Shown: positions 10,214 through 20,703, counted from the stretch's first letter. The stretch is DNA of 64,000 nucleotides from Bacteroidota bacterium (GCA_013298895.1 JAAFJM010000017.1:1-64000); one strand, 5' to 3'. Notes: generated by a model from the letters alone, not told the origin. Numbers and translations: made by a program.

Positions 10214-11689
10214 ATGACTCAAAAACAATTAGAAGATTACCTTTGGGGTGCAGCAAATATTCTGCGAGGAATGATTGATGCAGCCGACTTTAAACAATAT
10301 ATATTTCCATTGTTGTTTTTTAAACGGGTAAGCGATTTGTGGGACGAGGAATACCAAACAGCGTTGGCAGAAAGCGGAGGCGATTTGGACTATGCCACTT
10401 TTGCCGAAAACCACCGTTTTCAAATACCTGAAGGTTGCCATTGGGAAGATGTTAGAAAAAGAACGGTTGATGTAGGTGAATACCTGCAAAAAGCATTGAA
10501 CGGAATTGAGAAAGCCAATTTTGAAATGCTGCACGATGTGTTTGGTGATGCCCAATGGACCAACAAACGTAGAATGAGTGATGAAAAAATGCTTGACCTG
10601 ATTGAACATTTTAGTAAAATGAAACTCACCATTGCCGAAGTGCCTCACGACATTATGGGCGAAGGTTACGAATACCTGATTAAGAAATTTGCTGACGACA
10701 GCGGACATACCGCAGCCGAGTTTTACACCAACCGAACCGTGGTAAAACTGATGACGCAAATTACTGACCCCAAAAGCAGCGAAAGTATTTACGACCCTAC
10801 CTGTGGGAGTGGTGGTATTTTGCTGAGTGCAGCTTTGCATCTGAAAGAGCAAGGCAAAGAATACCGAACACTGAAACTATACGGACAGGAACTAAACCTG
10901 ATTACCAGCGCCATTGCCCGTATTAATATGTTTATGCACAATGTAGATGAGTTTTTGATTGTGCAGGGCGACACCTTAGACAGCCCGCAAATATTGCAAA
11001 ATGACGAACTCAAAAAGTTTGATGTGATAATGGCTAACCCGCCCTACAGTGTAAAAAAGTGGAGCCAAAGCAAATGGATGAACGACCCTTTTGGACGCAA
11101 TATATGGGGAACACCACCACAAGGCTGTGCCGACTATGCTTTTCAGCAGCACATCATGCGCAGCCTGAACCCGGAAACAGGGCGTTGTGTAGTGCTTTGG
11201 CCCCACGGAGTGTTGTTTAGAGATAGTGAAGCCGAGATACGCAAACGCATGATTGAAGAAGATTATGTAGATGCCGTAATTGGCTTGGGTAAAAACCTAT
11301 TTTATAACAGCAGCATGGAAAGTTGTTTGCTGGTGTCCCGTATGAAAAAGCCAAAGGAAAGAAAAGGCAAAATTATTTTTATTGATGCCAAAGAGGAATT
11401 ACGCATAGAACGCACCAACGCCTGGCTAGAACCACAGCATATAAAAAAGATAAGTGATGCTTATTGGAATTTCAAAGACGTTGAAGGTCTCTCCAAAACC
11501 ATTGGTAATAAAGATGTCTTAGGAAATAATGGCAATTTGAGTATATAGCTATATGTAAAGCAAGCTGCAATTGAGAATGGACACAATACTGAAAATTTAA
11601 TTGCGGAAGTAAAAATTAACCAAACAAAAATTAATTCTTCGATAGAAAACCTATTTGGTCAACTTAGAAATATTGGAATTGAAGCATGA
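10214..11689 (+). CDS. hsdM: Type I restriction-modification methyltransferase subunit HsdM; reading frame interrupted by TAG at 11546-11548
   Basis: ORF 10214-11548 has MTQKQLEDYLWGAANILRG, TAAEFYTNRTVVKLM, DPTCGSGG and NPPY. After the in-frame TAG the frame continues LYVKQAAIENGHNTENLIAEVKINQ...GIEA to TGA 11687-11689, overlapping the hsdS ATG (11686). Confidence 0.88.
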
Positions 11690-17727: not shown

Positions 17728-20703
17728 ATGGCATTCAACGAACAAAATACGGTAGAGCATTTTATCATTCACCAAATTACAGGGGTGAACTTAAATGCTG
17801 TGCAAGGCAATATGGTTAAGGAAGATGCAGTTGAATATGATTCAGTAAAATGGAAATATGTTCAAGCCGATTTACTGCAACGAGATATTACTGAAGTATT
17901 TGTAGAAAAGGAATTGAAAGAGACACTATGCCGCCTCAATCCAACAATTGCCGCCAATCCTGAAAAAGCAGAAGAAGTTATACATAAATTAAGGGCTATT
18001 CTTATTACCGTAAACAATGTGGGATTGGTAAGAGCCAATGAAGAATTTGCCAAATGGCTTCGCAATGAAATAACGCTTCCAATAGGTAAAAACAATGAGC
18101 ATGTTGTTATAAAACTGATTGACTTTGAAGTTTTAAAAAATAACAGTTTTGTGCTATGCAATCAATTTAAACTAAGAGCAAGAGAAACCAAAATTCCTGA
18201 CATTGTAATGTTTGTTAATGGAATTCCTTTGGTGGTTGGAGAAGCAAAAACCCCTGTGCGACCAGCTGTTACTTGGTTTGATGGTGCTCACGATATCAAT
18301 ATAGTGTATGAAAATTCAATACCTCAACTATTTGTACCTAATGTGTTTTCGTTTGCAACGGAAGGTAGAGAAATATTTATTGGAGGTGTACGCACACCAA
18401 TAGAACTTTGGGCTCCTTGGCGCATAGAAGATGATAAAGACGAACTAAGTCATTTTATTGGTTTACATGATGTGGCTAAGCAAATGACTCATTTGTTAAA
18501 ACCATCTACCTTGTTAGATATATTGCAATATTTTACCATTTATGCTACAAACAGTAAAAAGAAAAAAATAAAAGTAGTATGTCGTTATCAACAATATGAA
18601 GGCGCAAATGCCATTGTTGAAAGGGTAAAGGATGGTAAAATAAAAAAAGGACTCATTTGGCATTTTCAAGGTTCAGGTAAATCAAACCTGATGTTATTTG
18701 CAGCGCAAAAATTAAGAAAACAACAAGACCTTCAAAACCCTACTGTATTAATTGTAGTTGATAGAACCGATTTAGACACGCAAATTACCGCAACCTTTAA
18801 CGGTGCTGAAATTCCAAATACTATTACTACTGATAGCATAAGTGAACTTCATGAATTATTAGAACAAGATACTCGAAAAATCATTATTACGATGATGCAT
18901 AAATTTAGAAATGCAAAACCGAATATGAATGAACGAGAAAACATTATTTTATTGGTTGATGAGGCACACAGAACACAAGAAGGTGATTTAGGAAGGACCA
19001 TGAGAAATGCTTTACCGAACGCTTTCTTGTTTGGTTTAACAGGTACACCAATAAATAAGGCTGATAAAAATACATTTTGGGCTTTTGGTGCAGAGCAAGA
19101 TAGTGGCGGTTACATGAGTCGTTATACTTTTCAGGAAAGTATCAGAGACAATGCAACATTACCATTACACTTTGAGCCACGATTACCGAATTATCACATT
19201 GATAAAGAGAGTTTGGACATTGCTTTTAAAGAAATGGCCAACAACTTGAGTGAAGAAGATAGAAACAAACTTAGCCAAAAAGCAGCAAACATGGCCGTGT
19301 TTTTAAAGTCGCCCGAGAGAGTTAAAACTATTGTTGCCGACATTGTAGAACATTTTAAAGCACATGTTGAACCTGAAGGTTTAAAAGCAATGATTGTTAC
19401 TCCTGACCGTGAAGCTTGTGTTCAATATAAACAAGCTTTAGACCTTTTGATAAATCCAGAAGCAAGCGAAGTTGTTATCAGTTCATCAGCCAATGATGAA
19501 TTCGATTTCAAACAGAAATATGCAATGGATAAAGACAGGCAAGAAAAAGTAGTTGAAAAATACAACGATGCTGATTCTCCATTGAAATTTTTGATTGTGA
19601 CAGCAAAACTGTTGACTGGTTTTGATGCTCCAATTTTACAAACCATGTATTTGGATAAATCTTTGAAAGATCATACTCTTTTACAAGCCATTTGCAGAAC
19701 CAACCGACTATTCCCAAATAAAACATTCGGCAGAATAGTAGATTACTTTGGAGTATTTGATGATACTGCAAAAGCCTTGGCATTTGACGAAGAAAGTGTA
19801 AAATTAGTGATTACCAACTTGCAGGAATTAAAAGATAAACTTCCTGAATGGATGGAAAAATGTTTAAGTCATTTTCCATCAGTTGATAGAGCACTTACTG
19901 GTTTTGAAGGACTTTCTGCGGCACAAGATTGTATTGATACCAATGAAAAACGTGATGCTTTTGCAAAGGACTTTAGTAGTTTAACAAAATTGTGGGAAGC
20001 ACTTTCTCCTGACCCTATTTTAAATCAATTTGCGAAGGATTACAAATGGTTATCGCAAGTTTACACTTCTGTAAAACCAGCATCAGACGACAATGGAAGA
20101 TTATTGTGGCATGCTTTGGGTGCACAAACTACCGCACTTATACATGAACACATTCACGTCTCGGGCATCAATCATGAAATGGAAGAAGTGATTTTGAATG
20201 CAGATGTGATTGATGATTTAATGAATAAGAAAGACCCAAAACAAGCGGAGAAGGTTTTGTTAATTCTTATTGGTCGCTTAAACAAACATGAGAATAATCC
20301 AATATTCAAAAGACTCAGCGAAAGATTAGAAGCCATTAGAGACAAAGCAGAAAAAGGATTGATTAACTCTATTGAGTTCATCAAGGAACTTTGTCAATTA
20401 GCCAAAGAAACATTACAAGCCGAAAAAGGAACTGAACCCGAAGTTAAACAAAAAAATGCCAAAGCTGCGTTAACAGAGTTGTTTCTTGAACTGAAAACTA
20501 ATACTACACCCGCTATTGTTGAACGAATTGTAAACGATATTGACGAAATTGTAAGAGTGGTTCGTTTTGATGGTTGGCAAAACTCTTCGGTAGGCGAAAG
20601 AGAAGTGAAAAGGGAACTACGCAAGGTACTTTGGACAAAATATCAAATTAAGGACGAGGATTTGTTTAATAGGGCTTACGACTATATAAAGGAATATTAT
20701 TAA
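17728..20703 (+). CDS. hsdR: Type I restriction endonuclease subunit HsdR
   Basis: N-terminal nuclease IPDIVMFVNGIPLVVGEAKTP; helicase motifs FQGSGKSNLM, LLVDEAHRTQEGD, FGLTGTPI, LLTGFDAPILQTMYLDK. Confidence 0.95.
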   Translation: MAFNEQNTVEHFIIHQITGVNLNAVQGNMVKEDAVEYDSVKWKYVQADLLQRDITEVFVEKELKETLCRLNPTIAANPEKAEEVIHKLRAILITVNNVGLVRANEEFAKWLRNEITLPIGKNNEHVVIKLIDFEVLKNNSFVLCNQFKLRARETKIPDIVMFVNGIPLVVGEAKTPVRPAVTWFDGAHDINIVYENSIPQLFVPNVFSFATEGREIFIGGVRTPIELWAPWRIEDDKDELSHFIGLHDVAKQMTHLLKPSTLLDILQYFTIYATNSKKKKIKVVCRYQQYEGANAIVERVKDGKIKKGLIWHFQGSGKSNLMLFAAQKLRKQQDLQNPTVLIVVDRTDLDTQITATFNGAEIPNTITTDSISELHELLEQDTRKIIITMMHKFRNAKPNMNERENIILLVDEAHRTQEGDLGRTMRNALPNAFLFGLTGTPINKADKNTFWAFGAEQDSGGYMSRYTFQESIRDNATLPLHFEPRLPNYHIDKESLDIAFKEMANNLSEEDRNKLSQKAANMAVFLKSPERVKTIVADIVEHFKAHVEPEGLKAMIVTPDREACVQYKQALDLLINPEASEVVISSSANDEFDFKQKYAMDKDRQEKVVEKYNDADSPLKFLIVTAKLLTGFDAPILQTMYLDKSLKDHTLLQAICRTNRLFPNKTFGRIVDYFGVFDDTAKALAFDEESVKLVITNLQELKDKLPEWMEKCLSHFPSVDRALTGFEGLSAAQDCIDTNEKRDAFAKDFSSLTKLWEALSPDPILNQFAKDYKWLSQVYTSVKPASDDNGRLLWHALGAQTTALIHEHIHVSGINHEMEEVILNADVIDDLMNKKDPKQAEKVLLILIGRLNKHENNPIFKRLSERLEAIRDKAEKGLINSIEFIKELCQLAKETLQAEKGTEPEVKQKNAKAALTELFLELKTNTTPAIVERIVNDIDEIVRVVRFDGWQNSSVGEREVKRELRKVLWTKYQIKDEDLFNRAYDYIKEYY

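What the first reader, a model, noticed from the sequence alone, without database searches (positions are those of the whole stretch)
10214..20703. Composite defence operon: type I R-M with two ATPase-nuclease modules between hsdS and hsdR
Seen: hsdM, hsdS, five extra genes and hsdR lie on one strand with almost no gaps (5 bp; TAATG overlap; 2 bp; 34 bp; ATGA overlap; 0 bp). This looks like one transcriptional unit. Known: type I R-M loci often host accessory defence genes, and Septu (PtuA ATPase + PtuB HNH) is an anti-phage system. Inference: a nested island where R-M and two ATPase-nuclease modules are co-expressed, perhaps with the modules acting if restriction is blocked. I cannot say whether this exact gene order has been described.
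Basis: partly seen in the sequence, partly recalled or inferred. Interest (0 to 1): 0.85.

Follow-up and report, generated by a model that had tools for sequence, protein, structure and literature searches.

The report
Type I R-M operon with defence cargo
A bacterial restriction-modification operon carries three extra anti-phage modules slotted between two of its genes, a known kind of arrangement whose cargo differs from genome to genome, and in this genome the methylase gene of the operon has a premature stop that probably disables restriction but leaves the cargo intact.

Summary
It is an in-frame TAG at 11546-11548 where relatives have Gln. The frame then continues 46 codons and overlaps hsdS, so HsdM has lost the C-terminal part that binds HsdS in studied enzymes.

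The two modules are known: Septu (PtuAB) and PADLOC's PDC-M29AB. PDC candidates are genes found embedded in other defence systems. N153 matches no defence library; conservation and fold point to a PD-(D/E)XK nuclease.

The five genes are not one system. In eight relatives with 73-91% identical HsdR, the hsdS-hsdR slot holds different combinations or nothing. Across 17 HsdR-sampled loci it is filled in ten (AbiE-like, retron, GNAT/kinase and others), always co-directional.

Best reading: an exchangeable cargo slot of co-transcribed, largely autonomous back-up defences. Nothing here shows that the cargo senses blocked restriction. Embedding between hsdS and hsdR is already published, so this is a new member of a known kind.

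The parts
10214..11548 (+). hsdM, type I DNA methyltransferase subunit, 444 aa; truncated by TAG
   Evidence: PADLOC MTase_I 2.9e-189; motifs DPTCGSGG and NPPY; 120 best homologues 485-514 aa, none 444
11546..11548 (+). in-frame TAG at codon 445, where related hsdM genes encode Gln
   Evidence: six relatives have CAA and a seventh aligns Gln; TAG is an ordinary stop in this window (9 of 40 genes)
11549..11689 (+). untranslated hsdM tail, 46 intact codons then TGA overlapping the hsdS start
11686..12858 (+). hsdS, specificity subunit, two target recognition domains
   Evidence: Pfam Methylase_S 8.6e-37; TRD swaps among relatives
12864..14579 (+). ptuA, Septu ATPase (571 aa)
   Evidence: PDLC00287 1.1e-147; Walker A GENGSGKT, Walker B GIVIIDE
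14579..15472 (+). ptuB, Septu HNH nuclease (297 aa)
   Evidence: PDLC00316 1.1e-69; CGYC...EHYRPK...CPKCN
15475..15930 (+). N153, predicted PD-(D/E)XK nuclease (151 aa), no family above cut-off in Pfam, PADLOC or NCBIfam
   Evidence: invariant E17, D42, K58; model pLDDT 87.6, best PDB fold I-Ssp6803I, then EcoRV and Hjc
15965..17227 (+). PDC-M29A, ABC/RecF-type ATPase (420 aa)
   Evidence: PDLC04562 8.8e-153; Walker A GNQGSGKS, VEEPEQ
17224..17727 (+). PDC-M29B, predicted PD-(D/E)XK nuclease (167 aa)
   Evidence: PDLC04563 1.5e-51; RC(D/E)...E(L/I)K conserved in 21 sequences; weak fold matches to BspD6I and XPF nucleases
17728..20703 (+). hsdR, restriction/translocation subunit (991 aa)
   Evidence: TIGR00348 3.9e-165; PDIV...GEAK, GSGKS, DEAH

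Best explanation
A horizontally spreading Bacteroidota type I R-M operon (hsdM-hsdS-hsdR) has an exchangeable cargo slot between hsdS and hsdR. Here it holds three units read in the same direction: Septu (ptuAB), a small PD-(D/E)XK nuclease (N153) and the ATPase/nuclease pair PDC-M29AB. Shown: gene content, spacing, intact motifs, exchange of the units among relatives with a conserved hsdM/hsdR frame, and an in-frame TAG in hsdM. Inferred: all eight genes are co-transcribed; the cargo encodes second-line, largely self-contained nuclease defences. PtuAB would follow the studied Septu/retron PtuAB (tRNA or DNA cleavage, abortive infection). M29A would sense infection through its variable middle region and license M29B. 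The TAG removes the HsdM region needed to bind HsdS, so in this strain restriction and methylation are probably off or very low while the cargo stays functional.
For: Families and motifs. Slot exchange: L052 HATPase-N153-M29AB; L053 HATPase-N153-PtuAB; L057 N153 alone; L058 and L059 N153-M29AB; L045 DarG-like macro-M29AB; L100 M29AB; L101 empty. HsdM and HsdR are 80-93% identical to the window's in seven of these, while M29A is 45-72% among them, M29B 29-75%, PtuA 43%. M29A of L045 is a mosaic. More distant relatives carry PDC-M21, PDC-M11, retron III-A or PD-Lambda-4-like cargo. Two other hsdR loci of this genome also have defence genes just 5' of hsdR. M29AB occurs alone between housekeeping genes. 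HsdM tail; in T. tengcongensis HsdM, deleting 21-40 C-terminal residues abolishes HsdS binding (PMC3047542). PtuAB activity: PMC11555353, PMC13096335.
Against: No expression data; internal promoters cannot be excluded (sigma-70-like matches are at chance level, and Bacteroidota promoters differ). The TAG rests on one assembly and could be a consensus error, a minority allele or partly suppressed; it is one change from CAG but two from the CAA codon seen in relatives. PtuA, M29A and N153 activities are inferred from homology; M29B fold matches are weak.
Confidence: 0.68

Rival explanations
1. Guard model: one or more modules are held inactive by the HsdMSR complex and released when a phage inhibits restriction, as PrrC is by EcoprrI.
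For: Same slot and orientation as published embedded genes; prrC lies inside a type IC operon and is released on anti-restriction (PMC12707154, PMC3874165). ATPase plus nuclease layout as in PARIS; M29A has distant hits to AriA.
Against: M29AB occurs without R-M genes nearby in at least eight loci and PtuAB is autonomous elsewhere; cargo changes while HsdM/HsdR stay constant; in this genome HsdM is truncated yet the cargo stays open and the lineage lives, which a toxin tethered to the complex would not easily tolerate.
Confidence: 0.15
2. The five inserted genes form a single composite system in which N153 links PtuAB and M29AB.
For: Tight packing; N153 adjoins PtuAB or M29AB in five loci including the window and a Septu pair in the distant L070.
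Against: No other locus has all five; PtuAB lies on different sides of N153 in the window and L053; L057 has N153 alone; L045 and L100 have M29AB without N153. N153 also adjoins pAgo and MkoC genes.
Confidence: 0.07
3. A decaying R-M island: hsdM is dead and the rest is drifting remnant cargo.
For: TAG in hsdM; a second metagenome relative (L059) has hsdM broken near codon 409.
Against: All other seven frames are open with motifs intact; low dN/dS for N153, M29B and the hsdM body; the TAG looks recent, since the tail is otherwise intact.
Confidence: 0.1

Closest known systems
RptR-RMS-DarTG-M48 island of enteropathogenic E. coli (PMC12255303)
   Same: A complete second defence system (DarTG2) sits between hsdS and hsdR in one operon; the authors call the site a potential hotspot for defence systems.
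   Different: Different cargo (one TA pair); the island starts with the repressor gene rptR, which was not looked for here; different phylum.
V. cholerae VPI-2 type I R-M with TgvAB (PMC11411939)
   Same: Two-gene defence system embedded in a type I operon; both shown active.
   Different: Cargo is a type IV GmrSD-like restriction system; a single module.
EcoprrI-PrrC
   Same: Nuclease with ABC ATPase embedded in a type I operon.
   Different: PrrC is a single-chain anticodon nuclease sequestered by the R-M enzyme; no PrrC/HEPN homologue found here.
Septu (PtuAB)
   Same: ptuA-ptuB pair with intact ATPase and HNH motifs.
   Different: PtuA of the PDLC00287 subfamily, with about 190 residues before the ATPase domain; no retron RT among the operon genes.
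PDC-M29 (PADLOC-DB 2.0.0, found by guilt-by-embedding)
   Same: Both components match near full length.
   Different: Untested candidate; here it shares the slot with Septu and N153.

Membership tests
Type I restriction-modification | hsdM, hsdS, hsdR with methylase motifs I/IV, two TRDs, PD-ExK plus DEAH motor | tested here: met
Type I restriction-modification (working enzyme) | HsdM able to bind HsdS and methylate | not testable with these tools
   46 C-terminal residues lost by TAG; loss of binding is inferred from PMC3047542, not assayed
Septu | adjacent ptuA (ABC ATPase) and ptuB (HNH) matching PtuA/PtuB profiles | tested here: met
   PDLC00287 1.1e-147, PDLC00316 1.1e-69; motifs
Septu | infection-triggered nucleic acid cleavage, abortive phenotype | not testable with these tools
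   known for other PtuAB
Retron type I-A | reverse transcriptase and ncRNA next to PtuAB | tested here: not met
   none of the eight operon genes matches an RT; NF041760 116.8 bits versus cut-off 500; ncRNA not searched
PDC-M29 | adjacent M29A ATPase and M29B matching PADLOC models | tested here: met
PD-(D/E)XK nuclease (N153) | alpha-beta core with acidic residue, (D/E)-x-K and upstream Glu | tested here: met
   E17, D42, (E/D)56-x-K58 in 31 diverse sequences; Foldseek top hits 2ost, NhoI, EcoRV, Hjc, but E >= 0.015
PD-(D/E)XK nuclease (PDC-M29B) | same core | tested here: inconclusive
   motif met; fold matches weak, TM about 0.2-0.3
PrrC-type R-M guard | ABC ATPase fused to HEPN anticodon nuclease, sequestered by HsdMSR | tested here: not met
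   no HEPN/PrrC family hit in any insert gene; sequestration not testable

The most novel reading that the evidence does not exclude
N153 is an undescribed defence gene: a small PD-(D/E)XK nuclease that plugs into unrelated defence units (type I R-M slot, Septu, pAgo and MkoC neighbourhoods). In this operon it works with or between ATPase modules that stay active when the R-M core is silenced by the hsdM stop, so the operon runs as a cargo-only defence.
Probability: 0.25. Interest if true: 0.6.

Novelty: new member of a known kind. Interest (0 to 1): 0.42.

Why it matters
It shows the hsdS-hsdR junction of one Bacteroidota type I lineage acting as a swap slot for whole defence modules, with a slowly changing R-M frame around fast-changing cargo, similar arrangements at two other hsdR loci of the same genome, and an unlisted nuclease family that recurs there. 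The natural hsdM stop also offers a direct test of whether embedded modules need a working R-M enzyme.

Tried and rejected
One five-gene system: rejected because no relative has the set. Retron I-A effector: rejected, no RT among the operon genes. Amber recoding: rejected, TAG ends 9 of 40 genes in the window; a suppressor tRNA elsewhere in the genome was not searched. Complementation of HsdM by a paralogue: the genome's other HsdMs are only 33-41% identical over the matched parts, so unlikely. Internal promoters or terminators: no signal above chance. Sequence search of PDB for N153 and M29B: nothing. Plasmid search with HsdR: only hits below 60% identity, so no evidence of a plasmid carrier. 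Empty site: congener G444 matches window 7106-9763 and then diverges, so the island's other edge was not found. The Payne 2024 preprint and the Septu structure paper were not held.

Full report
OBSERVATION. One was left out: the hsdM reading frame ends at 11548 and hsdS begins at 11686. The gap is not a spacer. The hsdM frame continues past a TAG for 46 sense codons to a TGA that overlaps the hsdS start codon. Six hsdM genes of related loci have CAA (Gln) at that codon and a seventh (L101) aligns Gln there. The 120 best database relatives are 485 to 514 residues, none 444. TAG is an ordinary stop codon in this window (9 of 40 genes). So this hsdM carries a premature stop. It looks recent: the body is under strong constraint (dN 0.044, dS 0.83 against L053) and the tail holds no further lesion.

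WHAT THE GENES ARE. HsdM, HsdS and HsdR match type I families strongly. The insert holds PtuA and PtuB of Septu (E 1e-147 and 1e-69) with Walker A, Walker B and HNH-type motifs intact. Next is N153, 151 aa, without a family above cut-off in Pfam, PADLOC or NCBIfam. Last is the pair PDC-M29A/PDC-M29B (E 9e-153 and 1.5e-51). PDC families were defined by guilt-by-embedding, i.e. as genes embedded in known defence loci (PMC10855318, PMC12988326), and are mostly untested.

N153. It has at least 307 homologues. Residues E17, D42 and K58 are invariant and position 56 is Glu or Asp across 31 diverse sequences. An AlphaFold2 model (pLDDT 87.6) matches the PD-(D/E)XK homing endonuclease I-Ssp6803I best (probability 1.0, E 0.015), then NhoI, EcoRV and Hjc. 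The E-values are marginal, but the set is consistent. A scan of 85,488 species genomes gave nine relatives at 56% identity or more. Five sit in the hsdS-hsdR slot of this same R-M lineage. The others include one 5' of a MkoC-type gene and one 5' of a pAgo gene. In the distant locus L070 a family member follows a Septu pair. N153 is therefore best described as a recurrent, unlisted nuclease of defence loci. PDC-M29B shows a conserved RC(D/E)...E(L/I)K core but only weak fold matches.

THE SLOT. I compared eight loci whose HsdR is 73 to 91% identical to the window's. Between hsdS and hsdR they carry: HATPase, N153, M29AB (L052); HATPase, N153, PtuAB (L053); N153 (L057); N153, M29AB (L058, L059); a DarG-like macro gene and M29AB (L045); M29AB (L100); nothing (L101). 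None has the window's set. HsdM and HsdR are about 80 to 93% identical to the window's in seven of them, whereas M29A is 45 to 72% among them, M29B 29 to 75%, and PtuA 43%. M29A of L045 resembles L100 over most of its length but the window at its C terminus, so even single genes recombine. Five of these loci were found through N153, which biases the count. In a less biased sample, 17 loci (window included) found through HsdR or already held and matching it, down to about 54% identity, the slot is filled in ten, always in the direction of hsdR. The cargo includes PDC-M21 (AbiE-like), PDC-M11 (GNAT plus kinase), retron III-A and a PD-Lambda-4-like protein (L105 and L112 were judged by gene size only). 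In this same genome a second type I locus (contig C4) carries a pAgo pair, a KAP ATPase and NsnABC between hsdS and hsdR, and a third hsdR (contig C78) is directly preceded by AbiD.

MECHANISM. Shown: architecture, intact motifs, exchange, the hsdM stop. Inferred from the literature: the lost tail matters. In T. tengcongensis HsdM, removing 10 C-terminal residues is tolerated but removing 21, 30 or 40 abolishes co-purification with HsdS, and the EcoKI HsdM C terminus is likewise reported as essential for assembly (PMC3047542). The window's HsdM lacks the last 47 positions (the stop codon and 46 more). Without M2S neither methylation nor restriction is expected. PtuAB from retron-Eco7 and from an E. 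coli Septu depletes or cleaves tRNA-Tyr and aborts infection, while another Septu is reported to cut DNA (PMC11555353, PMC13096335), so the target of this PtuAB is open. M29A keeps conserved ends and a variable middle, which fits a sensor region on a conserved ATPase; that is inference.

GUARD OR INDEPENDENT? PrrC is the precedent for a module released when R-M is blocked (PMC12707154, PMC3874165). Against applying it here: M29AB stands without R-M genes nearby in at least eight Bacteroidota loci, cargo is swapped freely, and the modules persist beside a truncated HsdM. I put the guard model at 0.15.

NOVELTY. Embedding between hsdS and hsdR is published (DarTG2, with the site named a potential hotspot, PMC12255303), as are TgvAB in a type I operon (PMC11411939) and GHKL/HEPN and Abi genes in R-M operons (PMC3710099). 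This is a new member of a known kind. The additions are N153, the measured exchange in one lineage, and the natural hsdM stop.

Noticed in passing
window 11546-11689: In-frame TAG in hsdM followed by 46 intact codons; relatives have Gln. Possible inactivation of the R-M core, or an assembly error.
   Followed up: yes
L138 (G000 contig C4:73500-92193): Second composite type I locus in the same genome: hsdM, PDC-S02, small ORF, hsdS, DUF4062-pAgo pair, KAP ATPase, NsnABC, hsdR, all on one strand.
   Followed up: partly
L140 (G000 contig C78): Third hsdR with AbiD (Abi_2) immediately 5' and a tyrosine recombinase-like gene upstream near the contig end, which might drive hsdS inversion.
   Followed up: no
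window 20865-21990: Two tandem arrays (156 bp x 4.8 and 130 bp x 3.3) right after hsdR; partial copies occur at many other places in the genome (28 matches in all).
   Followed up: partly
window 22083-31913 (-): 3276-aa repeat-rich protein that looks like a surface protein, with a DNA array of 249-bp units (27440-28421).
   Followed up: no
window 10214-11548: hsdM is 42% GC, while the other operon genes are 28-35% and the window's other genes average 32%, which suggests a different origin.
   Followed up: no
L059 7354-8840: hsdM of this relative is also interrupted (frame lost near codon 409), in a metagenome assembly.
   Followed up: partly
L099, L102-L104, L106, L109, L111, L112: More distant relatives carry two hsdM-like genes, with further inserts between them in some loci.
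   Followed up: no
window 9763 / L124: Synteny with the close congener G444 breaks 65 bp upstream of the ABC-F gene, marking the likely left edge of the island.
   Followed up: partly
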